Of a DNA stretch of 64,000 nt, positions 10,004 through 28,968 are shown one piece after another. This DNA comes from Clostridium niameyense (GTDB taxonomy: Bacteria; Bacillota; Clostridia; Clostridiales; Clostridiaceae). Positions within the stretch are counted from its first letter, which is position 1, and each line of letters begins with the position of its first letter. Position numbers and translations under genes: made by a program. A model generated the notes under the pieces. The model made no database searches. It saw only the letters and a program-made list of their open reading frames with translations, and had not been told where the DNA came from. The DNA lies in the NCBI RefSeq assembly GCF_001243045.1, contig NZ_LN849007.1:896989-960988 (forward strand), read 5' to 3'.

Positions 10004-11761
10004 ATGAATGGCGGTATAGAACTTATTTATACAGTTAAAAGTATTATGAGAAAAGACTTTGTTAAAATAACATCAAAAGAACAGGTTTCTAAGGCTATTT
10101 TAAATATAGATAAATGTGGAAAAGATGAACTAATTGTAGTAGATGAAAAAGATGAATTTATAGGCATACTTACTAAAGATCATTTATATAAGATACAAAG
10201 AAAAGAAAAAAATAGCGATAAAATAGTAGAAAATTATATAAACAAAAAATATGTAACAATTTTTTTAGAAGAATCTATTATTTCTGCTAAGGAGATAATG
10301 AGAAAAAACAAAATACATATATTGCCCGTATTAAATAAAAACAAACAAGTTATAGGAATTGTAAGATTAGATGATTTGAATAATGAATTATATTTCAGCA
10401 TAAAAGAACTATATAATCTACAAGATAAAATTCTTGAAAATATGCATGAAGCTGTTTGTATAACTAATGATAAAGGTGTCGTTATATATTGGAACAAAAG
10501 TTCTGAAGAGTTATATGGAGTAAAAAGGGAAGATATTATAAAGAAACCTATACACAAGGTATTTCCTAATCCTTTAATTTACAAGGTATTAAAAAATCCT
10601 AGAAAGATAACTAATGTATATAATGAGCCTTTTCCAGGAAAAACTGTAATATTAAGTACAGTACCTATATTTAATAGTAAAAATAAATTAGTAGCAGTAG
10701 TTTCTACGGATAGAGATATTACAGAAGTTATTTCTCTGTCAAAAGAACTTATGAAAGAGAAAAATAAAGTGGAGTTTTTTGAAAGTGCTTATAAAAAGGA
10801 AATAGCTTCAAATTATAATTTTTCTTCTATTATAGGTAGAAGTGCAAAAATTATTGAAAATATTATTATAGCTAAAAAAGTAGCTCCTACTTCAGCCAGC
10901 GTTTTAGTTACAGGTGAAAGTGGTACAGGTAAAGAGGTATTTGCAAAAGCTATTCATAAAGCTAGTGGAAGAACTGGAAATTTTGTTGCTATAAATTGTA
11001 GTGCTATACCGGAAAATTTATTTGAAAGTGAATTATTTGGTTATACAGGAGGAACATTTACAGGTTCATTAAAGGAAGGTAAAATAGGTAAATTTGAGTT
11101 TGCCAATAATGGAACATTGTTTCTTGATGAAATTGGAGATATGCCTTTGAGTATGCAGGCTAAATTGTTAAGAGTTTTGCAAGATGGTATGGTATACAGA
11201 ATAGGAAGCCAAAAAGGTGTAAAAGTAAACTGTAGAATTATAGCTGCAACTAATAGGGATTTGCCTTCTATGATAAAGAAAAATACTTTTAGAGAAGACT
11301 TATTTTATAGATTTGCTGTAGTTCAGATAGAATTACCTCCTTTAAGGGAGAGACAAGAAGATATAAAGGAATTTGTGGATTTATTTATAAGTCAAGTATG
11401 TGAAAAGGAAGGAATAAATATAAGTAATATAGATAAAGAAGTATATAAAGTTTTAACAGAGTATAAATGGGAAGGAAATATAAGAGAACTTAAAAATGTA
11501 GTGGAGAGAATGGTTGTTTTATCTACAGATGGAGAAGTTACATTAAAATCTGTTCCTGTCTATATAAGAGATTATGTAAGTGATATAGAAAGAGATACTT
11601 TTTATAAATATGATTTAAATCAAGTTGTTAAGAGTACAGAAAGGAAAATAATAAGAGAGGTTATGGCACTTACTAAAGGAAATAAGAAAAAAGCAGCAGA
11701 AATACTCAATATAAAAAGAAGTACTTTATATTATAAATTAAATCAATATGAACTTATATAA
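10004..11761 (+). CDS. prdR: Sigma-54-dependent transcriptional activator of the prd genes (PrdR)
   Basis: Protein of 585 aa. Two N-terminal CBS domains (about 8-120), a PAS domain (about 135-245, with CITNDKGVVIYWNKSSEELYG), an AAA+ sigma-54 interaction domain (about 275-505; Walker A GESGTGKE at 304-311) and a C-terminal Fis-type helix-turn-helix (about 548-583, TKGNKKKAAEILNIKRSTLY). The GAFTGA loop is GTFTGS here (350-355). In C. difficile PrdR switches on the prd operon in response to proline. It sits at the head of the island, and -24/-12 promoters precede both complete cassettes. The ATG follows GGAGG. Confidence 0.93.
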   Translation: MNGGIELIYTVKSIMRKDFVKITSKEQVSKAILNIDKCGKDELIVVDEKDEFIGILTKDHLYKIQRKEKNSDKIVENYINKKYVTIFLEESIISAKEIMRKNKIHILPVLNKNKQVIGIVRLDDLNNELYFSIKELYNLQDKILENMHEAVCITNDKGVVIYWNKSSEELYGVKREDIIKKPIHKVFPNPLIYKVLKNPRKITNVYNEPFPGKTVILSTVPIFNSKNKLVAVVSTDRDITEVISLSKELMKEKNKVEFFESAYKKEIASNYNFSSIIGRSAKIIENIIIAKKVAPTSASVLVTGESGTGKEVFAKAIHKASGRTGNFVAINCSAIPENLFESELFGYTGGTFTGSLKEGKIGKFEFANNGTLFLDEIGDMPLSMQAKLLRVLQDGMVYRIGSQKGVKVNCRIIAATNRDLPSMIKKNTFREDLFYRFAVVQIELPPLRERQEDIKEFVDLFISQVCEKEGINISNIDKEVYKVLTEYKWEGNIRELKNVVERMVVLSTDGEVTLKSVPVYIRDYVSDIERDTFYKYDLNQVVKSTERKIIREVMALTKGNKKKAAEILNIKRSTLYYKLNQYELI

Positions 11762-11925: not shown

Positions 11926-13239
11926 ATGTCAAATATATACAGATTTTATCTAAAAATGCACGTGGGGGTTCCGAGTAGTCCTATAGTAAACATAGGACAA
12001 AAAGTAAAAAGAGGAGAATGTATAGCAGAGCCAATTAAAGGCTTAGGAGCTAAAATTCATACTAGTGTATCTGGAATTGTAAAAAATATTACAGAAGATG
12101 AAGTAATAATAGAAAAGGACAAACTAGATAAAGAAGATTTTATAAAAATAAAAAAATGTGAAAGTATAATAGATACGGTTTATGAAGCAGGAGTAGTGGG
12201 AGCAGGTGGAGCAGGTTTTCCAACTCATATAAAATTAAAGTCTAAAATACCAGATGGTTATATAATAGCTAATTGTGCAGAATGTGAACCATCCTTTCAT
12301 CATAATATATATTTAGCAGAAAATTATCCTAATCTTATTATAAAAGGTATAAAATATGCTATGGAAGCTACTGATGCTCCAAAATCTTATATAGGTATAA
12401 AAGGAAAACATAAGAAAGCTATAAAATCTTTAAAAGAAACTATAAAACAAGAAGATAATATAGAAATAAAAGAAGTTTTAGACATATATCCAGCAGGAGA
12501 AGAAAGAGCATTAATTCACTCTATATTTGATGAATGGTTAGCGCCAACACAACTACCTATAGAAGCCAATTGTGTAGTTTTAAATGTAGAAACTTTAGCG
12601 AATATAACAAGAGCAATAGAATATGGAAAACCAGTTATAGATAAAGATTTAACTATTATGGGTAAGTTAAAGAATGGTATAGGTCCCTATATATTTTTAC
12701 AAATGCCTATAGGAAAATCTATGGAAGATATTTTACATGAATGCGGCGGAATTTCAAATAATTATGGAGAAATTATAATAGGAGGTCCTTATACAGGAGT
12801 ATCAAAACCTCTTGAAGAGTCTTTTATAACTAAAATATCTGGTGGTGCTATAGTAACTATTGAATTGCCACAGTATAAAGGACCTATAGGTCTTTTAATA
12901 TGCGCTTGTGCAGGACATGAGGAAAGACTTGAAGATATAGCAAGTAAGATGGGATCTAAGGTTGTAGCTATAGCTAGGTGTAAAAACTTAGTAGATATTA
13001 AAGGAAACTATAAATGTAAGACTCCAGGGAAGTGTCCAGGTCAAGCTGCGGCTGTAATGTATTTAAAGAATAAGGGTGCAGAAAGGATTATTGTATCTAA
13101 TTGTAGTGATTGTACCAATACAGTAATGGGGATAGCGCCTAAATTAAAATTACCAATTTATCATGAAACAGACCATGTGTTCAGAACGTTAAATTATAAG
13201 TTAACAAGGAGACTTCCAAAAGAGAAGCTCCATAAATAA
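11926..13239 (+). CDS. prdC: PrdC-like RnfC-family electron transfer protein, cysteine form 1
   Basis: Protein of 437 aa, the first of four PrdC paralogues here. The N-terminal lipoyl-like fold (MHVGVPSS...KVKRGECIAEP) is followed by the RnfC/NuoF-like flavin-binding motif GVVGAGGAGFPTHIKL (about 87-102) and C-terminal cysteine motifs CACAG, KCKTPGKCPGQAA and NCSDC. PrdC is proposed to pass electrons to proline reductase. At the position where two paralogues have selenocysteine this copy has Cys (TGT), and no hairpin follows. It is the most divergent copy. The start at 11926 follows AAGGAGTGG; the upstream in-frame ATG at 11866 lacks a site and lies in the promoter. Confidence 0.88.
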   Translation: MSNIYRFYLKMHVGVPSSPIVNIGQKVKRGECIAEPIKGLGAKIHTSVSGIVKNITEDEVIIEKDKLDKEDFIKIKKCESIIDTVYEAGVVGAGGAGFPTHIKLKSKIPDGYIIANCAECEPSFHHNIYLAENYPNLIIKGIKYAMEATDAPKSYIGIKGKHKKAIKSLKETIKQEDNIEIKEVLDIYPAGEERALIHSIFDEWLAPTQLPIEANCVVLNVETLANITRAIEYGKPVIDKDLTIMGKLKNGIGPYIFLQMPIGKSMEDILHECGGISNNYGEIIIGGPYTGVSKPLEESFITKISGGAIVTIELPQYKGPIGLLICACAGHEERLEDIASKMGSKVVAIARCKNLVDIKGNYKCKTPGKCPGQAAAVMYLKNKGAERIIVSNCSDCTNTVMGIAPKLKLPIYHETDHVFRTLNYKLTRRLPKEKLHK

Positions 13240-13277: not shown

Positions 13278-13700
13278 ATGTCAATGACAGCAGAACACGC
13301 AGAAGAATTAAAAAATGAACCAGCAGTTGTATGTTGTAGAACAGAAGAAGGAACTATATTAGGAGCAGAAAATTTAGAAGATCCAGATATATTCCCAGAC
13401 ATGGTTGATTCTGGTTTATTAACTATTCCAGATAATAATCTAAAAGTAGGTCAAGTAATAGGAGCTAAGTTACTAAAAACTATTGATTCATTATCTCCAT
13501 TAACTACAGATATAGTAGAAGGATACAAAGAAATAGGCGGAGAAGATGATAAAAAAGAAGAGTCTAAATTAGAAGCGGTAGAAGAAGTAGCAGAAGAAGT
13601 TGAAGAATGCTGCGAAGACGCTACAGCTTATGTAGAAGGCGGAGTACTTAAGATCAAAATAGAAGAAGGTACAGGAATAGATATAGAATTACCTCTATAA
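13278..13700 (+). CDS. Free-standing PrdA N-terminal module protein, short form (140 aa)
   Basis: Residues 1-80 are nearly identical to the N-terminus of the two full PrdA proteins: MSMTAEHAEELKNEPAVVCC, then GTIL..ENLEDPDIFPDMVDSGLLTIPDNNLKVGQVIGAKL. An acidic linker (about 90-112) leads to the short beta segment GGVLKIKIEEGTGIDIELPL, which in PrdA sits between the N-modules and the reductase core. The catalytic core and the pyruvoyl-forming cysteine are absent, and the gene ends cleanly at a terminator, so this looks like a dedicated small protein, not decay. It has one module copy. It is paired with a cysteine PrdC 38 bases upstream. Function unknown. Confidence 0.85.
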   Translation: MSMTAEHAEELKNEPAVVCCRTEEGTILGAENLEDPDIFPDMVDSGLLTIPDNNLKVGQVIGAKLLKTIDSLSPLTTDIVEGYKEIGGEDDKKEESKLEAVEEVAEEVEECCEDATAYVEGGVLKIKIEEGTGIDIELPL

Positions 13701-13710
13701 TATTTCCTGA

Positions 13711-13737
13711 AAGCAAAGGCCAAAAGCCTTTGCTTTT
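13711..13737 (+). terminator. Terminator of the first cysteine cassette
   Basis: AAGCAAAGGC (13711-13720) and GCCTTTGCTT (13726-13735) with a 5-base loop and a T-tract. The remaining bases up to 13918 hold AT-rich inverted repeats around AAGCTTAT but no clear gene. Confidence 0.9.
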
Positions 13738-13918
13738 TTATTTTTTCTTCTAATAATGTTTGTTAAAAATATTTAAAATTTTTACAAGAGCTATAAGCTT
13801 ATTTTATAGATCTCTCAAAGCTTTATAGAATAAATTAATATAAGCTTTTTTTAGTAGTAAATAGTTCAATTTGTTTTTATAATGAATATGAGAGAATAAA
13901 ATTTAGGAGGTATTATAC

Positions 13919-15223
13919 ATGGAAAAAATATACAAGTTTCCTTTAAAAATGCATGTAGGAGCACCAGATAAACCATGTATTAAGGAAGGACAAAAAGTAA
14001 AAAGAGGGGAATGTATAGCAGAGCCAACTGGCTTAGGAGCAAAGATACATACTAGTATGTCAGGAATAGTTGATAAGATAACAGATACTGAAATAATAGT
14101 AAAAGCTGACGAAAATCAATCAAAAGATTTTGTTAAAATAAAAAAATGCGATAATATTTTAGATACAATATTTGAAGCAGGAATAGTAGGAGCGGGTGGA
14201 GCAGGTTTTCCAACTCACATTAAGTTAAAAGCTAATATACCAGATGGATATATTATAGCTAATTGTGTAGAATGCGAGCCAGCATTACATCATAATATAG
14301 AATTTATAGAAGAAAATCCACAAGTTTTGATAAATGGTATAAAATACGCAATGGAAGCTACTAAAGCACCAAAGGCTTTTATAGCTATAAAAGGAAAACA
14401 TGAAAAAGCAATAAAAATCTTAAATGATTGTTTAAAAGGTGAAAAAAATATCGAAATAAAAGAGTTAAAAGATATGTATCCAATGGGAGAGGAGAGAGCA
14501 ATAATTCATGCTATTCTTGACAAATGGTTAGAACCAACACAACTTCCATTAGATGCAAAATGTGTAGTTATAAATGCAGAAACTTTAGCAAATATAACAA
14601 GAGCTGTAGAGGATGGAAAGCCTGTAATTGATAAGGATATAACAGTAATAGGAAAATTAAAAAGTGGAAATAAGCCAAACATATTTATTCAAGTACCAGT
14701 AGGTACATCTGTAAAGGATTTAATTGAAGAATGTGGTGGAATAGATGGGGAATATGGTGAAGTTGTTATAGGCGGACCATATACAGGAAAAGCTGGAGAT
14801 TTAGAAACATCTACAGTGACAAAAATATCTGGAGGGGTAATAGTTACAATTCCTTTCCCAGAATACAAAGGACCTTTAGGACTTTTGGTTTGTGCATGTG
14901 GTGCTAATGAAGAAAGATTAAGAGATATAGCAGGTAAAATGAAGTCAGAAGTAGTAGGTGTTACAAAATGTAAAAATGTTGAAGAAATAAAGGGAAATAA
15001 TAAATGTAAAACTCCAGGAGATTGTCCTGGACAAGCAGCAGGAATAATGTACTTAAAAAAACAAGGAGCTAAGAGAATATTAATATCAAACTGTAGTGAC
15101 TGCTCAAATACAGTTATGTGTTGTGCACCAAACTTAGGATTGCCAGTATATCATCATACAGATCATGTATTTAGAACTTTAGATTATACTTTAACTAGAA
15201 GGCTTCCAATGGAAAACAAATAG
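13919..15223 (+). CDS. prdC: PrdC-like RnfC-family electron transfer protein, cysteine form 2
   Basis: Protein of 434 aa with the same layout as the other PrdC copies: MHVGAPDKPC and KVKRGECIAEP at the N-terminus, GIVGAGGAGFPTHIKL (about 85-100), ECEPALHHNIE, CACGANEERLRD, KCKTPGDCPGQAA and NCSDCSNTVM. Cys (TGT) replaces selenocysteine and there is no downstream hairpin. It lacks the GKGNGPG insertion present just before the selenocysteine in the other two copies. AGGAGG precedes the ATG. It is followed by a second free-standing PrdA N-module gene. Confidence 0.9.
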   Translation: MEKIYKFPLKMHVGAPDKPCIKEGQKVKRGECIAEPTGLGAKIHTSMSGIVDKITDTEIIVKADENQSKDFVKIKKCDNILDTIFEAGIVGAGGAGFPTHIKLKANIPDGYIIANCVECEPALHHNIEFIEENPQVLINGIKYAMEATKAPKAFIAIKGKHEKAIKILNDCLKGEKNIEIKELKDMYPMGEERAIIHAILDKWLEPTQLPLDAKCVVINAETLANITRAVEDGKPVIDKDITVIGKLKSGNKPNIFIQVPVGTSVKDLIEECGGIDGEYGEVVIGGPYTGKAGDLETSTVTKISGGVIVTIPFPEYKGPLGLLVCACGANEERLRDIAGKMKSEVVGVTKCKNVEEIKGNNKCKTPGDCPGQAAGIMYLKKQGAKRILISNCSDCSNTVMCCAPNLGLPVYHHTDHVFRTLDYTLTRRLPMENK

Positions 15224-15268
15224 TCAAAAAGTATTAAAATATTTATTAATAAGAGAGAGGGTTTTAAA

Positions 15269-15907
15269 ATGTCAATGTCAGCAGAACATGCAGAGGAGCT
15301 AAAAGATGAACCTGCAGTAGTGTGCTGTAGGACAGAGGAAGGAACTATATTAGGAGTGGAGAATTTAGAAGATCCAGATATATTTCCTGATATGATGGAA
15401 TCAGGACTTTTAACTATTCCAGATAATTGTTTAAAAGTAGGACAGGTTATAGGATCTAAGCTTATAAAAACTATTGATTCATTAACTCCGATATCTTCTA
15501 ACATAGTGGAGGTAGATAAAACTGGGGAAAAGTCAAATAGAGATTCAAAAGTAGAAAAAAGAAAGTTGAATCTACCACAAGAAAAAGCAGTTTTAAAGTA
15601 TAATCTGAAAAAAGGAGATATAATAAAGCCAGAGGATTTGGAAAATCCAATGCATTTTGAAAAATATGAAGATTCCTTATTAATTAAATTGAATAATAAG
15701 GTTCTTACAAGGGAAGAGGTTATAGGCACAAAATTAAAAGAAGATGTAGTTGCACTAACCCCACTTAATATTTGTATGATAGAAAGAACTGATAAACAAG
15801 TATCAAAGACATTTTCTTTTGATACAGAAGTAGATGGAAGTGGAAGGTTTTTGAGCCTTAAAATTAAAGAAGGAAAAGGAATATATATAGAATTACCTTT
15901 TAGGTAA
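15269..15907 (+). CDS. Free-standing PrdA N-terminal module protein, two-module form (212 aa)
   Basis: Residues 1-80 match the PrdA N-module with the VVCCRTEEGTIL cysteine pair; about 105-170 is the second, divergent copy (KAVLKYNLKKGDIIKPEDLENPMHFEKYEDSLLIKLN), as in PrdA. It ends with the PrdA-type beta segment (SLKIKEGKGIYIELPF). The reductase core is missing. A linker of about 20 charged residues replaces the acidic linker of the 140-aa protein. It is 45 bases after the second cysteine PrdC and ends at a terminator, repeating the PrdC-Cys plus N-module pairing. Function unknown; an electron-carrier or assembly partner of the upstream PrdC is possible. Confidence 0.85.
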   Translation: MSMSAEHAEELKDEPAVVCCRTEEGTILGVENLEDPDIFPDMMESGLLTIPDNCLKVGQVIGSKLIKTIDSLTPISSNIVEVDKTGEKSNRDSKVEKRKLNLPQEKAVLKYNLKKGDIIKPEDLENPMHFEKYEDSLLIKLNNKVLTREEVIGTKLKEDVVALTPLNICMIERTDKQVSKTFSFDTEVDGSGRFLSLKIKEGKGIYIELPFR

Positions 15908-15911
15908 ATAT

Positions 15912-15950
15912 AAAATAAACTGTCAGAAAATAAAACTGGCAGTTTATTTT
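15912..15950 (+). terminator. Terminator of the second cysteine cassette
   Basis: AAAATAAACTGTCAG (15912-15926) pairs with CTGGCAGTTTATTTT (15936-15950), 15 base pairs with one G-T, and A/T tracts on both sides, so it may work in both directions. Confidence 0.85.
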
Positions 15951-16267: not shown

Positions 16268-16283
16268 TGGCATGTATTATGCT
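16268..16283 (+). promoter_or_regulatory. Sigma-54 (-24/-12) promoter of the first selenocysteine cassette
   Basis: TTGGCATGTATTATGCT: GG at 16269-16270 and GC at 16281-16282 with exactly 10 bases between, matching the TGGCAY-N5-TTGCW pattern except one base of the -12 box. It is about 35 bases before the prdC start, and an enhancer-binding protein gene (prdR) heads the locus. Confidence 0.8.
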
Positions 16284-16317: not shown

Positions 16318-17628
16318 ATGGAGAAGTTATACAAATTTCCTCTAAAAATGCATGTGGGGGCACCTGACGTTCCATGTGTAAAAGAGGGAAAACGTGTAAA
16401 AAGAGGTGAATGTATAGCAGAACCTAATGGATTAGGTGCTAAAATTCATACTAGTGTATCTGGATTAGTAGAAAAAATAACAGATAAAGAAATAATAATA
16501 AAAGCAGATAAAGAACAATCTAAAGATTTTGTGAAAATTAAAAAATGTAAAGATATTGTTGAATCAGTGTATGAAGCAGGAATAATTGGAGCTGGTGGAG
16601 CGGGATTTCCAACTCATATTAAGTTGAAAGCAGATATTCCAGATGGATATATTATAGCTAATTGCGTAGAGTGTGAACCAGCTCTTCATCATAATATAAA
16701 GATGATAGAAGAAAATCCTGAGATAGTTATAAATGGTATCAAGTATGCTATGAAGGCTACAAAAGCTCCAAAAGCATACATAGCTATAAAGTCAAAACAT
16801 GATAAAGCAGTAAGTATATTAAAGGAAGCATTAAAGGATGTAAAAGAGATTGAAGTAGCAGAATTACAAGATTTATATCCAATGGGAGAAGAAAGAGCAA
16901 TAATTCATGCTATATTTGATAAATGGTTAGAACCTACAGAGCTTCCTATAGAAGCTAAATGTGTAGTTGTAAATGCAGAAACATTAGCAAATATAACTAG
17001 AGCTGTTGAAGATAGAAAACCAGTTATAGACAAGGATGTAACAGTAATAGGAAAGTTAAAAACTGGAAATAAGCCAAATATATTTATGCAAACACCAGTA
17101 GGAACAGAGGTAAAAGAATTAATTGAACTAAGTGGTGGAATAGATGGAGAATATGGCGAAGTAGTTATAGGTGGACCATACACAGGAAAAGCTGGAGAAT
17201 TAGACGCATCTACAATAACAAAAACATCTGGAGGAGTAATAGTTACAATACCTTTCCCAGAATATAAAGGATCACTAGGATTATTAGTATGTGCCTGTGG
17301 AGCTAATGAAGACAGATTAAGAGATGTTGCAGGCAAGATGCATGCTAATGTAGTTTCAGTTGTAGATTGCAAGAATATAGAATATCCAAAGGGAAAAGGA
17401 AATGGTCCCGGAAAATGTAAGACACCAGGTGAATGACCAGGCCAAGCAGCTGCAGTTATGCAGCTAAAGAAAGATGGAGCAGAAAGAATATTAATATCTA
17501 ATTGCAATGATTGTTCAAACACAGTTATGCAAATAGCTCCAAAAGCTAAATTACCTGTATATCATCATACAGATCATATATTTAGAACAATAGACTATAC
17601 ATTAACTAGAAGACTTCCACAAGAATAA
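16318..17628 (+). CDS. prdC: PrdC, proline reductase-associated electron transfer selenoprotein (copy 3)
   Basis: Protein of 436 aa including selenocysteine at residue 373, encoded by the in-frame TGA at 17434-17436. Read-through is supported by uninterrupted homology on both sides (KCKTPGE-U-PGQAAAVMQLKK), by a hairpin starting 12 bases after the TGA and by two paralogues with Cys here. Other parts: KVKRGECIAEP lipoyl-like region, GIIGAGGAGFPTHIKL flavin-binding motif, CACGANEDRLRD and NCNDCSNTVM. It is thought to donate electrons to PrdB/PrdA. The ATG follows GGAGGTGGG; an upstream in-frame ATG at 16267 lies inside the sigma-54 promoter and is rejected. First gene of prdC-prdA-small-prdB. 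Confidence 0.93.
17434..17465 (+). promoter_or_regulatory. Selenocysteine UGA and SECIS-like hairpin in prdC copy 3
   Basis: TGA 17434-17436, then AGCTGC (17448-17453), loop AGTTAT, GCAGCT (17460-17465). A 6-bp perfect stem at this distance fits bacterial SelB-dependent recoding. The cysteine paralogues lack the stem. Confidence 0.8.
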
Positions 17629-17660: not shown

Positions 17661-19760
17661 ATGTCAATGACAGCAGAGCATGCAGAAGAATTAAAGAATG
17701 AACCTGCAGTAGTATGTTGTAGAACAGAAGAAGGAACCATATTAACAGCAGAAAACTTAGAAGATCCAGAAATATTTCCAGATATGGTGGATTCAGGACT
17801 TTTAACTATTCCTGATAATCATTTAAAAGTTGGGGAAGTAATAGGAGCAAAATTGCTTAAGACTGTTGATTCATTAACTCCATTAACTAATGAAATTGTA
17901 GATGGGGCTAAAATATCAGAAAATGATGCTAAAGTTTCTGAAATTGAAGAGTTAACTGAAGGTAGTGAAAAGGCAGTTCTAAAATATAATTTAAAAGCAG
18001 GAGATACTATAAAGGCTAGTGATTTAGAAAATCCAATGCACTTTGAAAAACTTGTAGATTCTCTATTAATAGATTTAAATGATGGAGTTCTTACAAGAGA
18101 AGAAGTTGTTGGGGCTACACTAAAGGTAGACACACCAGCTTTAACTCCTGTAACACCTGATATATTAGAAGGATTTGAGGAGGAAGTAAACATGAGTGTT
18201 GATGCAAAAGCAACAGTGAATGGTGGAACTTTAAGAATCAAGATTTCTGAAGGAAAAGGAATCGATATAGAAGTTCCTTTAAATGGAAAAGTTGGTTCAG
18301 GAAATCAAGTTACAGTTCCAGCTGTTAAAGCTAAAGAAGGAAAAGTAGAATCAAATGTAGCAGCAAACGTAGAAGTAAAACAAGAAGAAAAAGTTATAAG
18401 ATCTCTTACAAGAAAACATTATAAAATAGAAGAAGTTAAATTTGGAAAAGAAACAAAACTAGATGGAACAACTCTTTATATAAGAGAAAATATTTGTGAA
18501 GATGCAAAATTGGCTAGCCCATTAGTTTTAGATGTTAAGGTTGATATTATAACTCCAGATAAATATGATACTTACAGTGAAACTATAATGGATGTACAAC
18601 CAATAGCAACTAAGGAGTCTATGGATGACAAATTAGGAACAGGCGTTACAAGAGTATTAGATGGTGTTATCATGATGGTAACAGGAACAGATGCTGATGG
18701 AGTACAAATCGGAGAATTTGGTTCATCTGAAGGTATATTATCAGAAAACATCATGTGGAATAGACCAAGCTGCCCAGATAAGGGAGAAATATTCATAAAA
18801 ACTGATGTAACTATAAAAGAAAAGACTAACATGGAAAGACCAGGTCCAATGGCTGCCCATAAAGCTACAGATGTTATTACTCAAGAAATAAGAGAAGCTT
18901 TAAAAGCAGTTAAAGATGACTCTTTGGTAGTTGATACAGAAACTTTTGAACAAGTGAGAAGACCTGGAAAGAAAAAAGTTGTAGTTGTTAAAGAAATAAT
19001 GGGACAAGGTGCAATGCACGATAATTTAATTCTACCAGTAGAACCAGTAGGTTATCTAGGAGGTAAACCAAACGTTGACTTAGGAAACGTTCCAGTAATG
19101 CTTTCACCACTTGAAGTATTAGATGGTGGTATACACGCATTAACATGCATAGGACCTGCATCAAAAGAATGTTCAAGACACTATTGGAGAGAACCTCTAG
19201 TTATGGAATGCATGAAAGATCCAGAATTAGATTTATGCGGAGTTATATTTGTAGGAAGTCCACAAATTAACACAGAGAAATTCTACGTATCTGAAAGAAT
19301 GGGTATGATAGTAGAAGCTTTGGATGTTGATGGAGCTTTTGTTACAACAGAAGGTTTTGGAAACAACCACATTGACTTTGCAAGCCATGTTGAACAAATA
19401 GGTATGAGAGATATACCATGTGTTGCATTCTCATTCTGTGCAGTACAAGGTGCTTTGGTTGTTGGTAATAAATACATGAAATACATGGTAGACAACAACA
19501 AATCAGAAGGCGGAATAGAAAATGAAGTATTAGGTTGTAACACATTATGTAAAGAAGAAGCTGTAAGAGGAGTTGCAATGCTTAAAGCAGCTATGGATGG
19601 AGAAACTGTTAAAAAACCAGAAAGAGCTTGGAACCCAAATGTTAAAGAAAATAACTTAGAATTAATAGAAAAAGCTTATAGCGTAAAGATAGATAGAGTT
19701 CCAAATGAAACTTCATTACCTGAAAGTCAAAAGAGAAAAGAAAAATATTCAACAAAATAA
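17661..19760 (+). CDS. prdA: D-proline reductase proprotein PrdA (copy 1)
   Basis: Protein of 699 aa, about 65 residues longer than the C. sticklandii protein as I recall it. Order: N-module with CC at 19-20 (about 14-80), a second divergent module copy (about 105-174), the beta segment (about 178-208), and the reductase core (about 235-699). The self-processing site is HALT/C at Cys496, which becomes the pyruvoyl group of the C-terminal subunit while residues 1-495 form the other subunit. With PrdB it cleaves D-proline to 5-aminovalerate. AAGGAGG precedes the ATG. An internal GAGGAGG and ATG occur at codon 178. Confidence 0.95.
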   Translation: MSMTAEHAEELKNEPAVVCCRTEEGTILTAENLEDPEIFPDMVDSGLLTIPDNHLKVGEVIGAKLLKTVDSLTPLTNEIVDGAKISENDAKVSEIEELTEGSEKAVLKYNLKAGDTIKASDLENPMHFEKLVDSLLIDLNDGVLTREEVVGATLKVDTPALTPVTPDILEGFEEEVNMSVDAKATVNGGTLRIKISEGKGIDIEVPLNGKVGSGNQVTVPAVKAKEGKVESNVAANVEVKQEEKVIRSLTRKHYKIEEVKFGKETKLDGTTLYIRENICEDAKLASPLVLDVKVDIITPDKYDTYSETIMDVQPIATKESMDDKLGTGVTRVLDGVIMMVTGTDADGVQIGEFGSSEGILSENIMWNRPSCPDKGEIFIKTDVTIKEKTNMERPGPMAAHKATDVITQEIREALKAVKDDSLVVDTETFEQVRRPGKKKVVVVKEIMGQGAMHDNLILPVEPVGYLGGKPNVDLGNVPVMLSPLEVLDGGIHALTCIGPASKECSRHYWREPLVMECMKDPELDLCGVIFVGSPQINTEKFYVSERMGMIVEALDVDGAFVTTEGFGNNHIDFASHVEQIGMRDIPCVAFSFCAVQGALVVGNKYMKYMVDNNKSEGGIENEVLGCNTLCKEEAVRGVAMLKAAMDGETVKKPERAWNPNVKENNLELIEKAYSVKIDRVPNETSLPESQKRKEKYSTK

Positions 19761-19778: not shown

Positions 19779-20042
19779 ATGGATTTAAAATATGGCAACA
19801 GAATAATAGAAATGCAAGGTGTCATAGTAGAAGTTACAGATGGTTCTGTAGCGATAGATTTCAAGGGAAGGCTTGGATATTTAAGAGTTCCCAAAAGAAT
19901 GATAATATCTGATTACGAGCTAAAAGTAGGACAAGAAATTGGCCTTAACATGAGTTTTGTAGAAGTATTATCTGATGAAATAAATGAAAAATATGTAAGT
20001 AATTTAGAGTATCAAAAGAAAAAAGCTTTAAATAAAAAATAA
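19779..20042 (+). CDS. Small prd-associated protein (CBO2463/CBO2479-type domain), copy 1
   Basis: Protein of 87 aa. It begins MDLKYGNRIIEMQGVIVEV and continues DFKGRLGYLRVPKRMIISD, with an alternating hydrophobic pattern of a small beta-barrel. I recall a family of this kind named after two C. botulinum genes next to proline reductase; its function is unknown. It lies 18 bases after prdA and 36 before prdB, and an 80-90% identical paralogue occupies the same place in the second cassette, so it is likely part of the reductase or its maturation. No membrane segment or cysteine cluster is seen. Confidence 0.85.
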   Translation: MDLKYGNRIIEMQGVIVEVTDGSVAIDFKGRLGYLRVPKRMIISDYELKVGQEIGLNMSFVEVLSDEINEKYVSNLEYQKKKALNKK

Positions 20043-20078: not shown

Positions 20079-20804
20079 ATGAGTTTAACTATTGTAAAAG
20101 GATTACAATCTGAAATATTTGTTCCTATAACTCCAGATCCAGTATGGGCTCCAGTTACAAAGGAATTAAAAGATATGACAGTAGCAATAGCTACAGCAGC
20201 GGGAGTTCACTTAAAATCAGACAAGAGATTTAATTTAGCAGGTGATTTCACATATAGATTAATACCAGGAGATGCACCATCAAGTGATTTAATGGTATCT
20301 CACGGTGGATATGATAATTCAGATGTTAATAAGGACGTTAACTCAATGTTCCCAATAGATAGATTAAGAGAATTAGCAGATGAAGGATTCATAAAAGCAG
20401 TTGCTAAAACTCATGTAGGATTCATGGGTGGTGGCGGAAACCAACAAAAATTCAGAGAAGAAACTGGTCCAGCTATAGCTAAAATATTAAAAGATGAAGG
20501 CGTAGATGCAGTATTAATGACTGCTGGATGAGGTACTTGTCATAGATCTGCAGTGTTAGTGCAGAGAGCGATTGAAAAAGCAGGTATACCTACAATAATA
20601 ATAGCAGCCCTACCACCAGTTGTTAGACAAACTGGAACTCCAAGAGCAGTTGCTCCAAGAGTACCAATGGGTGCTAATGCAGGAGAACCAAACAATGTGG
20701 AAATGCAAACAGGAATAGTTAAGGATACATTAATAGAGTTAACTAAGATTCCTAGTGCAGGTAAAATAGTACCGCTTCCATATGAATATATAGCAAAAGT
20801 TTAA
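20079..20804 (+). CDS. prdB: D-proline reductase selenoprotein subunit PrdB (copy 1)
   Basis: Protein of 241 aa including selenocysteine at residue 151, encoded by TGA at 20529-20531 in the motif TAG-U-GTCHRSAVLVQRAIEK. It belongs to the glycine/sarcosine/betaine/proline reductase selenoprotein family; the selenol attacks the D-proline ring C-N bond bound as an adduct to the PrdA pyruvoyl group. Features include PDPVWAPVTKELKDM and HVGFMGGGGNQQKFREETGP before the active site. The frame is intact on both sides of the TGA and a hairpin follows. Last gene of its cassette, ended by a strong terminator. Confidence 0.95.
20529..20565 (+). promoter_or_regulatory. Selenocysteine UGA and SECIS-like hairpin in prdB copy 1
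   Basis: TGA 20529-20531, then TCTGCA (20547-20552), loop GTGTTAG, TGCAGA (20560-20565). The stem begins 16 bases after the TGA. The same structure is in prdB copy 2. Confidence 0.8.
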
Positions 20805-21115: not shown

Positions 21116-21904
21116 ATGGTGAGGCTATTGGAACAAGAAATAAAATTAAGAAGATTAGTAATTAAAACCTTTCATATAACTAAAGTTAAATTTGCAGAAA
21201 AAACCTATATTGAAGATGGTGTTTTATATATAAGAAATAATATATTAGATAATATTTTAAGCCATGAAGATATGGAAGGTGCAAACTTAATAGAAAAAAT
21301 TGATTTAAATATAATCAATCCAAATGAAAGGCACAAATTTGTAAATTCTATTATGGATTTTTTTCCAGTGGCTACTAAAGTTTTAGGATCTTTAGGAGAA
21401 GGAATAACTCATGTACTAACAGGGGTTCAAGTAATGCTAACAGGAGTTGAAAAAGGAGGAATTCAAGTAGCCGAATTTGGATCTTCAGAGGGAATACTAG
21501 ATGAACAAGTAGTATTTGGGAGAAGAGGAACTCCAGCAGAGGAAGATATAATAATCCATATTGATGTTACTTTAAAAGATGGTCAAGCTACTAATAGACC
21601 TGGCCCTATGGCCGCTCATCGAGTTTCTGATTTGATAATACAAGAAGTGAGAAACTACTTGAAGAGAATAAATGGAAGAGATTGCAGTGAAAAGTACGAA
21701 TATTTTGATAAAATAAAACCAGGAAAAAGAAAAGTAGTAATTGTAAAACAAGTAGCAGGACAAGGTTGTATGTACGACACAGGATTATTTCCTAATGAAC
21801 CTTGTGGTTTAGTTGGAGGAAAATCTATAATTGATATGGGTAATGTACCCATGGTAGTAAGTCCAAATGAATTCAGAGATGGCGTATTAAGAGCTATGAA
21901 TTAA
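21116..21904 (+). CDS. prdD: PrdD, homologue of the PrdA N-terminal processed part
   Basis: Protein of 262 aa aligning with the PrdA core before the cleavage cysteine: FHITKVKFAEKTYIEDGVLY, GVQVMLTGVEKGGIQVAEFGSSEGIL, NRPGPMAAHRVSDLIIQEV, QVAGQGCMYDTGLFPNEP, GNVPMVVSPNEF. It ends at RAMN, the position of HALT that precedes Cys496 of PrdA. The PrdA N-modules are absent. PrdD is conserved in prd loci; its role is unproven. Start: ATG at 21116 abuts AAAGG, and a TTG at 21128 after GGTGAGG is an alternative. 25 bases before prdE. Confidence 0.88.
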   Translation: MVRLLEQEIKLRRLVIKTFHITKVKFAEKTYIEDGVLYIRNNILDNILSHEDMEGANLIEKIDLNIINPNERHKFVNSIMDFFPVATKVLGSLGEGITHVLTGVQVMLTGVEKGGIQVAEFGSSEGILDEQVVFGRRGTPAEEDIIIHIDVTLKDGQATNRPGPMAAHRVSDLIIQEVRNYLKRINGRDCSEKYEYFDKIKPGKRKVVIVKQVAGQGCMYDTGLFPNEPCGLVGGKSIIDMGNVPMVVSPNEFRDGVLRAMN

Positions 21905-21929
21905 TGAATTTAAGGGTAGGTGATATGAA

Positions 21930-22400
21930 ATGGGTATAGGACCATCAACTAAAGAAACTTCATTGCATCATTTTAGGGATCCACTATTAGAAATAGTTTC
22001 AAATGATGATGATATAGATTTATTAGGAATAATAATTGCAGGGACACCCCAAGCAAATATTGAGAAGGTTTTTACAGGACAAAGGATAGGAGCGTGGGTA
22101 GAAGCTATGAGAGCTGACGGTGCTATAGTATCTATAGACGGTTGGGGAAATAGTAATATAGATTTTGCATCTGCCCTAGAAGCTATTGGTAAAAGAAATA
22201 TACCAGTAGTAGGTATGAGTTTTGTAGGAACTCAAGCACAATTTGTAACAACTAATGAATATATGGATACCGTAGTTGATTTTAATAAATCGAAAGAAGG
22301 TATAGAGACAGAGGTTGTAGGTGAAAATAACGTTATGCCAATAGATGCTAAAAAAGCTTTAGCATTTTTAAAAATAAAAATGAATAAAAATGAAAAATAA
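21930..22400 (+). CDS. prdE: PrdE, homologue of the PrdA C-terminal (pyruvoyl) part
   Basis: Protein of 156 aa aligning with PrdA from just after the cleavage site: MGIGPSTKETSLHHFRDPLL corresponds to CIGPASKECSRHYWREPLV, then GWGNSNIDFASALEAIGKRNIPV corresponds to GFGNNHIDFASHVEQIGMRDIPC. The initiator Met stands where PrdA has the pyruvoyl-forming Cys, so this protein cannot form a pyruvoyl group by that route. PrdD plus PrdE therefore look like a split, pre-cleaved PrdA. GGTAGGTG precedes the start. 12 bases before prdF. Confidence 0.88.
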   Translation: MGIGPSTKETSLHHFRDPLLEIVSNDDDIDLLGIIIAGTPQANIEKVFTGQRIGAWVEAMRADGAIVSIDGWGNSNIDFASALEAIGKRNIPVVGMSFVGTQAQFVTTNEYMDTVVDFNKSKEGIETEVVGENNVMPIDAKKALAFLKIKMNKNEK

Positions 22401-22412
22401 GGAGGCTTTATA

Positions 22413-23420
22413 ATGAGAGCAATTAGAACAATTCAAACTATTGAATCACATACTGTTGGAGAGCCAACAAGAATTGTAACAGGAGGAATACCAAAGATTC
22501 CTGGAAAAACAATGGCTGAAAAAATGGAATATCTTGAAAAAAACATGGATGATTTAAGAACAATGCTTATGTCAGAACCAAGAGGACATAACGATATGTT
22601 TGGTGCTATATACACAGATCCAGCAGATGAAACAGCAGACATTGGTATAATCTTCATGGATGGTGGTGGATACCTTAACATGTGTGGTCATGGTTCAATG
22701 GGAGCTGCAACTTGTGCAGTAGAAATGGGAATAGTACCTGTTGAAGAACCATACACAAACGTTAAGTTAGAAGCTCCAGCAGGAATGATACATGCAAAAG
22801 TTAAAGTAGAAGATGGAAAAGCTAAAGAAGCTTCAATAGTTAATGTTCCAGCTTTCTTATACAAAAAAGATGTAGAAATAGATGTACCTGATTTTGGAAA
22901 ACTTACATTAGATATATCTTTTGGTGGAAGTTTCTTTGCAATGGTAGATGTTGAAAAGATTGGAATGGAAATTTCACCAGAAAATGCTCAAAAGTTAAAT
23001 GATTTAGGAATGAAGATAGTTCATGCAGTTAATGAACAAGTAGAAATTCAACATCCAGTATTAAATCATATAAAAACTGTTGATCTTTGTGAATTCTATG
23101 GAAAACCAAAGAGCAAAGATGCAGATGTTCAAAATGTAGTTGTATTTGGTCAAGGACAAGTAGATAGATCTCCATGCGGAACTGGTACAAGTGCAAAGAT
23201 GGCTCTACTTTATGCAGAAGGCAAAATGAAAGTAGGAGAAGAAATCATAAACGAAAGTATTATATGTACTAAGTTTAAAGGAAAGATATTAGAGAAAACT
23301 AAAGTTGGAGAATATGATGCTATAATACCAGAAATAACTGGTAGTGCTTATGTTACAGGATTCTCTCAATTCTTAGTAGATCCAGATGATCCAGTTAAAT
23401 ATGGATTTGTTTTAAAATAA
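22413..23420 (+). CDS. prdF: Proline racemase
   Basis: Protein of 335 aa, normal for the family. It interconverts L- and D-proline without cofactor, supplying the D-proline used by PrdA/PrdB. The two catalytic cysteines are visible: Cys91 in MCGHGSMG and Cys255 in DRSPCGTGTSA. The N-terminal ESHTVGEPTRIV is also diagnostic. AAGGAGG precedes the ATG. It ends the prdD-prdE-prdF unit and is the only racemase gene in the island, shared by both reductase cassettes. Confidence 0.97.
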   Translation: MRAIRTIQTIESHTVGEPTRIVTGGIPKIPGKTMAEKMEYLEKNMDDLRTMLMSEPRGHNDMFGAIYTDPADETADIGIIFMDGGGYLNMCGHGSMGAATCAVEMGIVPVEEPYTNVKLEAPAGMIHAKVKVEDGKAKEASIVNVPAFLYKKDVEIDVPDFGKLTLDISFGGSFFAMVDVEKIGMEISPENAQKLNDLGMKIVHAVNEQVEIQHPVLNHIKTVDLCEFYGKPKSKDADVQNVVVFGQGQVDRSPCGTGTSAKMALLYAEGKMKVGEEIINESIICTKFKGKILEKTKVGEYDAIIPEITGSAYVTGFSQFLVDPDDPVKYGFVLK

Positions 23421-24435: not shown

Positions 24436-24451
24436 TGGCATAAACTTTGCT
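24436..24451 (+). promoter_or_regulatory. Sigma-54 (-24/-12) promoter of the second selenocysteine cassette
   Basis: TTGGCATAAACTTTGCT: GG at 24437-24438 and GC at 24449-24450 with 10 bases between, an almost perfect match to TGGCAY-N5-TTGCW, 40 bases before the prdC start. Confidence 0.9.
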
Positions 24452-24491: not shown

Positions 24492-25802
24492 ATGGTTAAT
24501 ATTTATAGGTTTCCTCTTAAAATGCATGTAGGAGCTCCAAATGTTCCTTGTGTAAAAGAGGGTCAAGTTGTAAAAAGAGGTGAATGTATAGCAGAGCCTA
24601 ATGGTCTTGGTGCTAGAATTCACACTAGTGTGTCTGGAATGGTAGAGAAGATTACAGACAAAGAAATAATAATAAAAGCAGAACAAAATACATCAACAGA
24701 TTTTGTTAAAATAAAAAAATGTAAGAAAATAGTAGATACTGTATATGAAGCAGGAATCGTTGGAGCAGGTGGAGCAGGATTCCCAACTCACATTAAGTTA
24801 AAAGCTGATATTCCAGATGGATATATTATAGCTAACTGTGTGGAGTGTGAACCAGCTCTTCATCATAACATTAAAGTTATAGAAGAAACTCCAGAAATTA
24901 TTATAAATGGTATTAGATATGCCATGGAAGCTACTAAAGCTCCTAAGGCATATATAGCTATCAAATCTAAGCATCCAGAAGCTATCAAATCTTTAGAAAA
25001 ATGTTTAAATGGTGCTAAAGATATAGAAATAAAAGCTCTTCCTGATTTATACCCAATGGGAGAAGAAAGAGCAATAATCAATGCTATATTTGATAAATGG
25101 CTAGAACCAACACAACTTCCAGTAGAAGCTAAATGTGTAGTATTAAATGCAGAAACGTTAGCAAATATAACTAGAGCTGTTGAAGACAGAAAACCAGTTA
25201 TAGATAAAGATGTAACAGTAATAGGAAAATTAAAAACTGGAAACAAGCCAAATGTATTTATTCAAGTACCAGTAGGAACTCCAGTAAAAGATTTAGTGGA
25301 ACAATCTGGTGGAATAGATGGAGAATATGGCGAAGTAGTTATAGGTGGACCATATACAGGAAAAGCAGGAAACTTAGAAGAAGATGCATTAACAAAAATG
25401 TCTGGGGGAATAATAGTTACAATACCTCTACCAGAATATAAAGGACCACTAGGATTATTAGTATGTGCCTGTGGAGCCAATGAAGATAGATTAAAAGATG
25501 TTGCAAATAAGATGAATGCTAGTATAGCAGGAGTAGTAGATTGTAAGAATATAGAATATCCAAAGGGAAAAGGTAATGGTCCTGGAAAATGTAAGACACC
25601 AGGTGAATGACCAGGTCAAGCAGCTGCAGTTATGCAGCTAAAGAAAGATGGAGCAGAAAGAATATTAATATCCAACTGTAATGATTGTTCAAATACAGTT
25701 ATGCAAATAGCTCCAAAAGCTAAATTACCTGTATATCATCATACAGATCATATATTTAGAACAATAGATTATACACTAACTAGAAGACTTCCACAGGAGT
25801 AA
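24492..25802 (+). CDS. prdC: PrdC, proline reductase-associated electron transfer selenoprotein (copy 4)
   Basis: Protein of 436 aa including selenocysteine at residue 373 (TGA 25608-25610), the same position as in copy 3, in KCKTPGE-U-PGQAA. It is very similar to copy 3, including the GKGNGPG insertion before the active site, with GIVGAGGAGFPTHIKL, ECEPALHHNIK, CACGANEDRLKD and NCNDCSNTVM. The ATG at 24492 follows AGGAGGG; an in-frame ATG at 24447 overlaps the sigma-54 promoter and cannot be used. Heads the second complete cassette. Confidence 0.93.
25608..25639 (+). promoter_or_regulatory. Selenocysteine UGA and SECIS-like hairpin in prdC copy 4
   Basis: TGA 25608-25610, stem AGCTGC (25622-25627) / GCAGCT (25634-25639), loop AGTTAT, identical to copy 3. 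Confidence 0.8.
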
Positions 25803-25831
25803 ACTGAAAAAATTTAAGGAGGTTATGTGAT

Positions 25832-27931: not shown

Positions 27932-27939
27932 GGATTTAA

Positions 27940-28218
27940 ATGAATTTAAAATATGGTGACAAAGTTATAGAAATGCAAGGAGTCATCGTAGAAGTATCAG
28001 ATGGAGCTGTAGCAATAGATTTCAAAGGAAGACTAGGCTATTTAAGAGTTCCAAGAAGAATGATAATATCTGACTATGAGCTAAAGGTAGGCCAAGAAAT
28101 AGGTCTTAATATGAGTTTTGTAGAGGTATTATCTGATGAGATAAATGAAAAATATGTAAGTAATCTTGAGGTTCAAAGAAGAAGAGGATTAGAACCTGAT
28201 GATAGATGGAAAAAATAA
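27940..28218 (+). CDS. Small prd-associated protein (CBO2463/CBO2479-type domain), copy 2
   Basis: Protein of 92 aa, paralogue of the 87-aa protein in the first cassette; the two agree along IIEMQGVIVEV / KVIEMQGVIVEV, DFKGRLGYLRVP and ELKVGQEIGLNMSFVEVLSD and differ mainly at the basic C-terminal tail (RRRGLEPDDRWKK here). It follows prdA by 8 bases and precedes prdB by 30. Function unknown; its fixed place between prdA and prdB in both cassettes suggests a role with the reductase. Confidence 0.85.
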   Translation: MNLKYGDKVIEMQGVIVEVSDGAVAIDFKGRLGYLRVPRRMIISDYELKVGQEIGLNMSFVEVLSDEINEKYVSNLEVQRRRGLEPDDRWKK

Positions 28219-28248
28219 GTTTTAAATTTAGAAGGGAAGGTTAAGAGA

Positions 28249-28968
28249 ATGAGCATTGTAAAGGGATTACAATCTGAAATATTTGTTCCTATAACTCCAG
28301 ATCCAGTATGGGCTCCAGTTACAAAGGAACTAAAAGACATGACAGTAGCAATAGCTACAGCAGCAGGAGTTCACTTAAAATCAGACAAGAGATTTAATTT
28401 AGCAGGTGACTTCACATATAGATTAGTACCAGGAGATGCACCATCAAGTGATTTAATGGTATCTCACGGTGGATATGATAATTCAGACGTTAATAAGGAC
28501 ATAAATGCTATGTTCCCAATAGATAGATTAAGAGAGTTAGTAGATGCAGGATTCATAAAAGCAGTTGCTAAAACTCATGTAGGATTCATGGGTGGTGGCG
28601 GAAACCAACAAAAATTCAGAGAAGAAACTGGTCCAGCTATAGCTAAAATATTAAAAGATGAAGGTGTAGATGCAGTATTAATGACTGCTGGATGAGGTAC
28701 TTGTCATAGATCTGCAGTGTTAGTGCAGAGAGCGATTGAAAAAGCAGGTATACCTACAATAATAATAGCAGCCCTACCACCAGTTGTTAGACAAACTGGA
28801 ACTCCAAGAGCAGTTGCTCCAAGAGTACCAATGGGTGCTAATGCAGGAGAACCAAACAATGTGGAAATGCAAACAGGAATAGTTAAGGATACATTATTAG
28901 AATTAGTTAAAATTCCTAGTGCAGGTAAAATAGTACCACTTCCATATGAATATGTAGCAAAAGTTTAA
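28249..28968 (+). CDS. prdB: D-proline reductase selenoprotein subunit PrdB (copy 2)
   Basis: Protein of 239 aa including selenocysteine at residue 149 (TGA 28693-28695). Apart from a two-residue shorter N-terminus (MSIVKGLQ against MSLTIVKGLQ) and a few changes, it is the same as copy 1. From about codon 100 onwards the DNA is nearly invariant between copies, including a 231-base identical stretch around the active site. It ends the second cassette, before a terminator. Confidence 0.95.
28693..28729 (+). promoter_or_regulatory. Selenocysteine UGA and SECIS-like hairpin in prdB copy 2
   Basis: TGA 28693-28695, stem TCTGCA (28711-28716) / TGCAGA (28724-28729), loop GTGTTAG, identical to copy 1. 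Confidence 0.8.

What the first reader, a model, noticed from the sequence alone, without database searches (positions are those of the whole stretch)
13278..15907. Free-standing PrdA N-terminal modules, each paired with a cysteine-type PrdC
Genes at 13278 (140 aa) and 15269 (212 aa) encode only the PrdA N-module(s) plus the short beta segment, with no reductase core. Both follow a PrdC-Cys gene and end at a terminator, so the pairing occurred or was kept twice. They are not simple decay, because the frames and regulatory ends are intact. A new two-protein system, PrdC-Cys with a small conserved CC-motif carrier, is possible, for example an electron relay or a decoy/assembly partner for the reductase.
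Basis: partly seen in the sequence, partly recalled or inferred. Interest (0 to 1): 0.85.

Follow-up and report, generated by a model that had tools for sequence, protein, structure and literature searches.

The report
Detached cysteine-pair module of proline reductase
Two small genes in this Clostridium genome encode only the cysteine-pair front piece of the enzyme that breaks down proline, and some related bacteria keep the same piece as a separate, selected gene, probably a loose part of that enzyme that passes on electrons or holds its partner.

Summary
Genes 13278-13700 (140 aa) and 15269-15907 (212 aa) encode only the N-terminal part of PrdA, each behind an intact Cys-type PrdC and ending at a strong hairpin. 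They are not decay: 20 of 119 module-bearing genomes have a free-standing copy, the CC motif is in 122 of 122 modules, and dN/dS is mostly 0.05-0.2.

An independent PrdC/N system is not supported. All 20 genomes also carry a long PrdA-type gene; of 22 free genes 16 stand directly before prdA and 11 directly behind prdC. In two genomes the operon's PrdA lacks the CC module, which a separate gene encodes.

Best reading: a detached CC-SAF module of D-proline reductase acting in trans as a mobile subunit; that it takes electrons from PrdC, or docks it, is inferred. In one family the CC module tracks the PrdA of its own genome while the tail does not, so both forms probably meet the same partner. 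In the window both pairs lack the sigma-54 promoter of the full prd operons.

In print I found only the label "partial proline reductase" for C. botulinum ATCC 3502. New variant of a known kind.

The parts
11926..13239 (+). PrdC1, Cys type (437 aa); longest branch of the window's four PrdC
   Evidence: TIGR04481 629 bits, cut-off 490; motif CKTPGKC, no TGA; PrdC tree
13278..13700 (+). N1, free-standing PrdA CC module (140 aa): module about 13278-13523, CC codons 13332-13337, acidic linker, beta tail about 13635-13697
13709..13737 (+). terminator hairpin after N1
13919..15223 (+). PrdC2, Cys type (434 aa)
   Evidence: TIGR04481 670 bits; motif CKTPGDC
15269..15907 (+). N2, free-standing double module (212 aa): CC module about 15269-15514 (CC codons 15323-15328), CC-less module 2 about 15572-15784, beta tail about 15842-15904
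15912..15950 (+). terminator-like hairpin after N2 (15-bp stem, 9-nt loop)
16268..16283 (+). sigma-54 type promoter match (1 mismatch) before PrdC3; none within 350 bp before PrdC1, N1, PrdC2, N2
16318..17628 (+). PrdC3, Sec type (TGA at residue 373)
17661..19760 (+). PrdA1 proprotein (699 aa): CC module, CC-less module 2, beta segment, core
19779..20042 (+). small CBO2463/CBO2479-domain protein between prdA and prdB
   Evidence: NF041553 90.9 bits, cut-off 50
20079..20804 (+). PrdB1, Sec type
21116..23420 (+). PrdD, PrdE and the PrdF proline racemase homologue
   Evidence: PrdD by TIGR04482; PrdE and PrdF named from gene order, recall and the annotated Enterococcus cluster
10004..11761 (+). 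PrdR-type sigma-54 activator
   Evidence: upstream of prdC in relatives; name from position and recall, no family search made
24436..24451 (+). sigma-54 type promoter, perfect match, before the second prd set
24492..28968 (+). second prd set: PrdC4 (Sec) 24492-25802, PrdA2 25832-27931, small protein 27940-28218, PrdB2 (Sec) 28249-28968

Best explanation
The two genes make a detached CC-SAF module of D-proline reductase PrdA. Anatomy (shown): a compact module of about 80 residues with an invariant Cys-Cys pair, a linker (acidic and predicted disordered in N1), and a C-terminal beta tail, encoded as a separate gene, mostly next to prdC or prdA. Function (inferred): it works in trans as a mobile small subunit of the Prd system, using the same partner surface as the CC module that PrdA carries on a flexible tether. 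Most likely it accepts electrons at Cys-Cys from the CxxC/CxxU end of PrdC and hands them to PrdA/PrdB, or at least docks PrdC to the reductase. In this window two such modules, each made with its own Cys-type PrdC, have left the sigma-54/PrdR regulon. I infer that they supply module and PrdC when the main prd operons are not induced.
For: (1) Recurrent and intact: 22 complete free-standing proteins, 20 from 20 of 119 module-bearing genomes plus two in the window; in one family all 6 module-bearing genomes of 119 sampled have one. (2) Natural split: in BL-3 (L002) and UMB00080 (L003) the order is prdC-N-prdA, and the operon's PrdA starts at the CC-less module 2, so in that operon the CC module is encoded only separately. 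(3) CC present in 122 of 122 modules, free or fused. (4) Purifying selection: dN/dS 0.10 (drakei/carboxidivorans), 0.14 (BL-3/UMB00080), 0.09 (N1/PrdA1 module), 0.11 (N1/N2). (5) The module tracks the PrdA of its own genome: label-shuffle p 0.003 (6 pairs), 0.00025 (7) and 0.018 (5) in three groups; in the 6-of-6 family the beta tail instead joins the free genes, 0.807 among free genes against 0.649 to own PrdA. (6) Position: directly behind prdC in 11 of 22, directly before prdA in 16 of 22. (7) Models: module blocks pLDDT 85-96, residues 88-115 under 50, tail about 58; in PrdA1 both modules are flanked by low-confidence linkers. (8) Sigma-54 sites before PrdC3 and PrdC4, none before the two N units; background 1.55% per 350 bp.
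Against: No direct evidence for electron transfer or binding. BL-3 and UMB00080 also carry a second, shorter PrdA paralogue with its own CC module elsewhere, so the genome as a whole is not without a fused CC module. No complete free gene was seen in 99 of 119 module-bearing genomes, nor in Acetoanaerobium noterae, so it is optional. Both window copies sit beside two PrdA genes that have their own module, so they do not replace a missing one there. One close pair (G985/G987) gives dN/dS 0.37 for N against 0.05 for PrdA, on few changes. The N2 beta tail gives 0.66 over 30 codons. 11 of 21 N units tested have no sigma-54 site, so leaving that regulon is not special to the window.
Confidence: 0.55

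Rival explanations
1. N is an assembly, docking or maturation factor rather than an electron carrier: it holds PrdC on PrdA, or occupies PrdC as a decoy, and the CC pair is structural or metal-binding.
For: The beta tail is poorly defined alone and may need a partner strand; position next to prdC or prdA; opposite regulation of N units and full operons after cold shock in ATCC 3502 (PMC3933689, passages).
Against: CC is present in 122 of 122 modules, more than a purely structural role would need; nothing separates docking from electron relay in the data.
Confidence: 0.27
2. N1 and N2 are leftovers of duplicated prdC-prdA units whose core was deleted, still translated but without function.
For: Tree and order fit an origin by duplication; the window has two such units beside two full ones.
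Against: No core remnant behind N1 or N2 above chance level, intact frames and hairpins, low dN/dS, the same kind of gene in 20 genomes of three families and in 6 of 6 module-bearing genomes sampled in one.
Confidence: 0.06
3. N carries selenide or a metal to PrdB or PrdC during maturation, the CC pair being the binding site.
For: Vicinal cysteines can bind metals or selenide (general knowledge); PrdB and some PrdC carry Sec.
Against: PrdC directly before N is Cys type in 10 of 11 cases. Selenium genes beside N were not searched for systematically.
Confidence: 0.07

Closest known systems
PrdA, D-proline reductase proprotein (TIGR04480), N-terminal part
   Same: Same CC module and beta segment; N1 is 91% identical to the PrdA2 module over 85 columns
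   Different: No reductase core and no pyruvoyl-forming region; separate gene; the tail ends the protein
cbo2488 (prdA4) and cbo2483 (prdA3) of C. botulinum ATCC 3502, called partial proline reductase
   Same: Behind a prdC gene in the same cluster; very probably the same genes (PMC3933689, passages); not compared by sequence
   Different: Named only as partial; no function or family was described in the passages read
SAF domain (PF08666)
   Same: 14 of 42 members of the N alignment match at E up to 0.01; PrdA1 and PrdA2 pass the gathering score (27.2 and 27.6 bits, cut-off 21)
   Different: Invariant Cys-Cys pair; N1 itself is just under the cut-off (20.6 of 21); 28 of 42 members do not match at E 0.01
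SuyA/SuyB and split UxaA enzymes, SAF domain as a separate small subunit (recalled, not tested here; one search found nothing useful)
   Same: A SAF domain that is fused in some enzymes and a separate gene in others (recalled)
   Different: Sulfo-lyase or dehydratase, not a selenoprotein reductase; no CC pair as far as recalled

Membership tests
D-proline reductase PrdA (TIGR04480) | whole-protein score over the curated cut-off (700 bits) | tested here: not met
   N1 143.7, N2 154.9 bits
D-proline reductase PrdA (TIGR04480) | reductase core with the internal cleavage region | tested here: not met
   only the N-terminal part of the model matches; no core remnant behind N1 or N2 above chance
PrdA N-terminal CC module (defined here) | Cys-Cys pair and the conserved module columns | tested here: met
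   122 of 122 modules including N1 and N2; alignment A3
PrdC (TIGR04481) | score over the cut-off (490 bits) | tested here: met
   PrdC1 629, PrdC2 670 bits
SAF domain (PF08666) | score over the gathering cut-off (21 bits) | tested here: inconclusive
   N1 20.6, N2 21.7, PrdA1 27.2, PrdA2 27.6; 14 of 42 relatives at E up to 0.01
SAF domain (PF08666) | beta-clip fold | not tested
   model made but fold search busy, then switched off
Electron carrier of the Prd system | redox cycling of the CC pair with PrdC and transfer to PrdA/PrdB | not testable with these tools
   bench test needed

The most novel reading that the evidence does not exclude
The free CC-SAF protein is a general diffusible redox carrier, comparable in role to a free-standing lipoyl or thioredoxin-like carrier. 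It serves PrdC and proline reductase and also other low-potential reductases: in two genomes, away from prd, it sits directly beside a double-cubane-cluster reductase.
Probability: 0.12. Interest if true: 0.85.

Novelty: new variant of a known kind. Interest (0 to 1): 0.55.

Why it matters
How electrons pass from NADH through PrdC to the selenoprotein D-proline reductase is a proposal, not a demonstrated path, in the passages I read (PMC3091704 proposes direct exchange between PrdC and PrdB). A naturally detached, conserved Cys-Cys module gives a small protein with which that step can be tested, and a natural split (BL-3 type) in which the PrdA module is already separate. It also points to a PrdC/N branch outside sigma-54 control in the window's lineage.

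Tried and rejected
Independent PrdC/N system: rejected because all 20 genomes with a complete free N also have a long PrdA-type gene. One ancient free-standing family: rejected for all 22 together (AU p 1.3e-67), for Clostridiaceae plus window (9.9e-5) and for family B (3.8e-6); family C only borderline (0.042), and there the tails group the free genes. Recent gene conversion as the cause of module tracking in family C: not shown, synonymous sites are near saturation. Rows are related, Sec/Cys needs 4 changes on the tree, and one N partner is Sec (L141). Core remnants: behind N1 and N2 nothing better than E 0.4; one 27-base reverse-strand blastn match (E 2e-4) lies before PrdC1 and was not followed up. 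Rfam: nothing in 9900-30100 at gathering scores. Defence families: none at E 0.1. Plasmid collection: 21 records, 20 listed; those with an annotated gene under the match are called prdA; Acetoanaerobium noterae read, no free N; four Enterococcus raffinosus records without annotation, the second place in the Enterococcus gilvus record and the unlisted record not checked. Left out before counting as cut by contig ends: L027 and L131 (G077), L134 and L050 (G150). L107 and L109 have identical modules and both count in the 22. One search left out L107, L001 (near copy of L010) and L002/L003 (no module in PrdA), and set both window copies against PrdA1; its Clostridiaceae beta permutation is void because of a missing value. 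One search had two errors, a repeated label (its row 'PrdA same pair' is G985/G987) and an out-of-frame 'core' row; redone. The beta-segment pattern failed; redone. The groups F and P are my own length and score cut. A search for a SAF-subunit precedent found nothing useful. The PrdH paper (PMC11229817) is not held; I know of it from passages of PMC13410763. dN/dS between strains of the window's species was not run: none turned up in the collections searched.
Full report
What is there. The window holds a proline reductase region: prdR-type activator (10004-11761), PrdC1-Cys, N1, PrdC2-Cys, N2, PrdC3-Sec, PrdA1, a small CBO2463-domain protein, PrdB1-Sec, PrdD, PrdE, PrdF, then a second set PrdC4-Sec, PrdA2, small protein, PrdB2-Sec. 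The make-up resembles the gene list given for C. botulinum ATCC 3502 in PMC3933689 (passages), so the window is probably from the C. botulinum group I / C. sporogenes lineage; this is an inference, as no genome is held for the window and no sequence comparison was made. N1 and N2 match only the front of TIGR04480. Both are open, have ribosome-site-like sequence upstream and end in strong hairpins.

Anatomy. Module 1, about 80 residues, carries an invariant Cys-Cys pair. PrdA of many Clostridiaceae has a second module of the same kind without CC; other PrdA proteins have only the CC module. After the module(s) come a variable linker and a beta segment of the type EGKxIxIEIP. All 22 complete free-standing proteins are module(s) + linker + beta segment and end within 13 residues after it. 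CC occurs in 122 of 122 modules (22 free, 35 in two-module PrdA, 49 in one-module PrdA, 16 in short PrdA paralogues; the last two split by my own cut). Module 2 has no Cys in its first 31 residues in 33 of the 35 two-module PrdA. The AlphaFold model of N1 gives block means of 85-96 for residues 1-80, under 50 for residues 88-115 and 58-59 for the last 20. The PrdA1 model shows two modules with the same order of helices and strands, flanked by low-confidence linkers, and a low-confidence hairpin before the core; no error map was given, so their placing is open. PrdA1 and PrdA2 pass the SAF cut-off; of 42 N sequences 14 match SAF at E up to 0.01.

Distribution. Profile searches found the module in 35 of 206 genomes of the family of C. 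drakei, 41 of 225 of its order (which contains the first set), 21 of 391 sampled in the class, 16 of 398 sampled in the phylum, 47 of 71 in family B (family of G388 and G513) and 6 of 119 sampled in family C (family of G564). The union is 119 genomes; 20 have a complete free-standing gene: 6 in Clostridiaceae, 8 in family B, 6 in family C, where every module-bearing genome sampled has one. All 20 also have a long PrdA-type match in the same tables. Four frames cut by contig ends, in two genomes, were left out. The class, phylum and family C draws are samples, so the shares are not rates for the whole groups.

Context. In Clostridiaceae (C. drakei, C. carboxidivorans, OS1-26, BL-3, UMB00080, G178) the order is prdC-N-prdA; in family B N stands directly before prdA in 8 of 8; in family C two are prdC-N-prdA, two stand beside prdF, and two lie away from prd beside a double-cubane-cluster reductase. 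Together with the window, 11 of 22 follow prdC directly (10 Cys, 1 Sec) and 16 of 22 precede prdA directly. In BL-3 and UMB00080 the operon's PrdA starts at module 2, so in that operon the CC module exists only as the separate gene; both genomes have a second, shorter PrdA paralogue with CC elsewhere.

Evolution. Free modules do not form one clade: 16 label changes, at least 12 forced by well-supported branches, on a tree of only 85 columns; AU tests reject one clade for all 22, for Clostridiaceae plus window and for family B, and are borderline for family C. Many free modules sit nearest the PrdA module of their own genome or its close kin. In family C the tails tell another story: identity among free tails 0.807, to own PrdA 0.649, whereas for the module it is 0.645 and 0.794. 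I read this as an old free gene whose CC module is kept in step with its own PrdA, by conversion or by shared constraint; synonymous sites are too saturated to choose. In family B module and tail both track the own PrdA, as expected for younger duplicates. In Clostridiaceae the module tracks (0.861 against 0.780 among free genes) and the tail does not clearly (0.671 against 0.716). In the window PrdA1 and PrdA2 have nearly identical modules (ps 0.05-0.07) against 0.31 in the core, so exchange between copies probably happens at this locus. Selection on N: dN/dS 0.10, 0.14, 0.09, 0.11 and 0.19 in the main comparisons; G985/G987 0.37, G513/G987 0.20.

Regulation. The PrdC3 and PrdC4 units have sigma-54 type promoters (1 and 0 mismatches); the 350 bp before PrdC1, N1, PrdC2 and N2 have none; chance is 1.55% per stretch. 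In five of the six other Clostridiaceae N lies in a unit with such a site. Over all 21 N units tested 10 have one; family C has none, its PrdC included where tested (G564, G1116, G1132); G987 was not tested. In ATCC 3502 the two prdC-partial-prdA units went down after cold shock while the full operons went up (PMC3933689, passages). This fits two differently controlled branches. Read-through from prdR into PrdC1 was not excluded.

PrdC partners. PrdC1 and PrdC2 pass the PrdC cut-off and keep the cysteine motifs. In the PrdC tree the Clostridiaceae N-linked rows fall in two groups with some Sec rows among them; the window's Sec PrdC3 and PrdC4 come out of the same group as its Cys PrdC1 and PrdC2. 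That Cys type plus N is the older state in this lineage is my reading, not a test.

Mechanism. Shown: a separate, selected CC module; gene neighbourhood with prdC and prdA; module tracking. Predicted: a flexible tether in PrdA. Inferred: it works in trans in the Prd system and the CC pair is the functional site. Not shown: electron transfer, binding, or need for the protein.

Literature. Searches for PrdA with PrdC, PrdH, 'partial proline reductase', D-proline reductase structure, C. sporogenes with Rnf, and SAF or vicinal-cysteine terms gave the ATCC 3502 label and, for C. sporogenes DSM 795, a 'second copy of PrdH2' beside a non-Sec PrdC (PMC4517662, passages), which may be the same kind of gene under another name. 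Of PMC3091704, PMC6615313, PMC13410763 and PMC10564238 I also read passages only. In these listings and passages nothing describes the free-standing module as a family; most subscription papers are not held.

Noticed in passing
L145:8683-10380 and L148:6234-7915: In two family C genomes the free N gene lies beside a double-cubane-cluster reductase gene (NF040772, 510 and 474 bits, cut-off 350), same strand but opposite order; each genome has two genes over that cut-off. Not seen beside the four other family C copies.
   Followed up: partly
17661-19760 and 25832-27931: PrdA1 and PrdA2 share nearly identical modules (first 60 codons ps 0.05, pn 0) but diverged cores; PrdB1/PrdB2 are also close (dS 0.10) while the small proteins between them are far apart (dS 0.71): patchy, conversion-like.
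   Followed up: partly
16318-17628, 24492-25802; L141, L149-L154: The Sec of PrdC sits at two different places: residue 369-374 (CKTPGx-U) in Clostridiaceae and residue 391-395 in other families; PMC3091704 (passages) noted a deviation for C. botulinum.
   Followed up: partly
L133:4863-10598: A second, PrdA-like system in BL-3: PrdC type, 590-aa PrdA paralogue with CC, small protein, 241-aa PrdB-like without an internal stop, 434-aa PrdD-like; substrate unknown.
   Followed up: no
29165-30034: A gene for a probable membrane protein that recurs near the end of many prd clusters, 46-77% identical; a proline or 5-aminovalerate transporter is possible.
   Followed up: no
19779-20042: The CBO2463/CBO2479-domain protein recurs between prdA and prdB in the clusters read, the Enterococcus gilvus plasmid included.
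   Followed up: no
13278-13700 and L014:2086-2544: N1 and the OS1-26 protein carry a second Cys-Cys pair in the linker, and the G178 protein has four extra linker cysteines; no such pair in the other free proteins.
   Followed up: no
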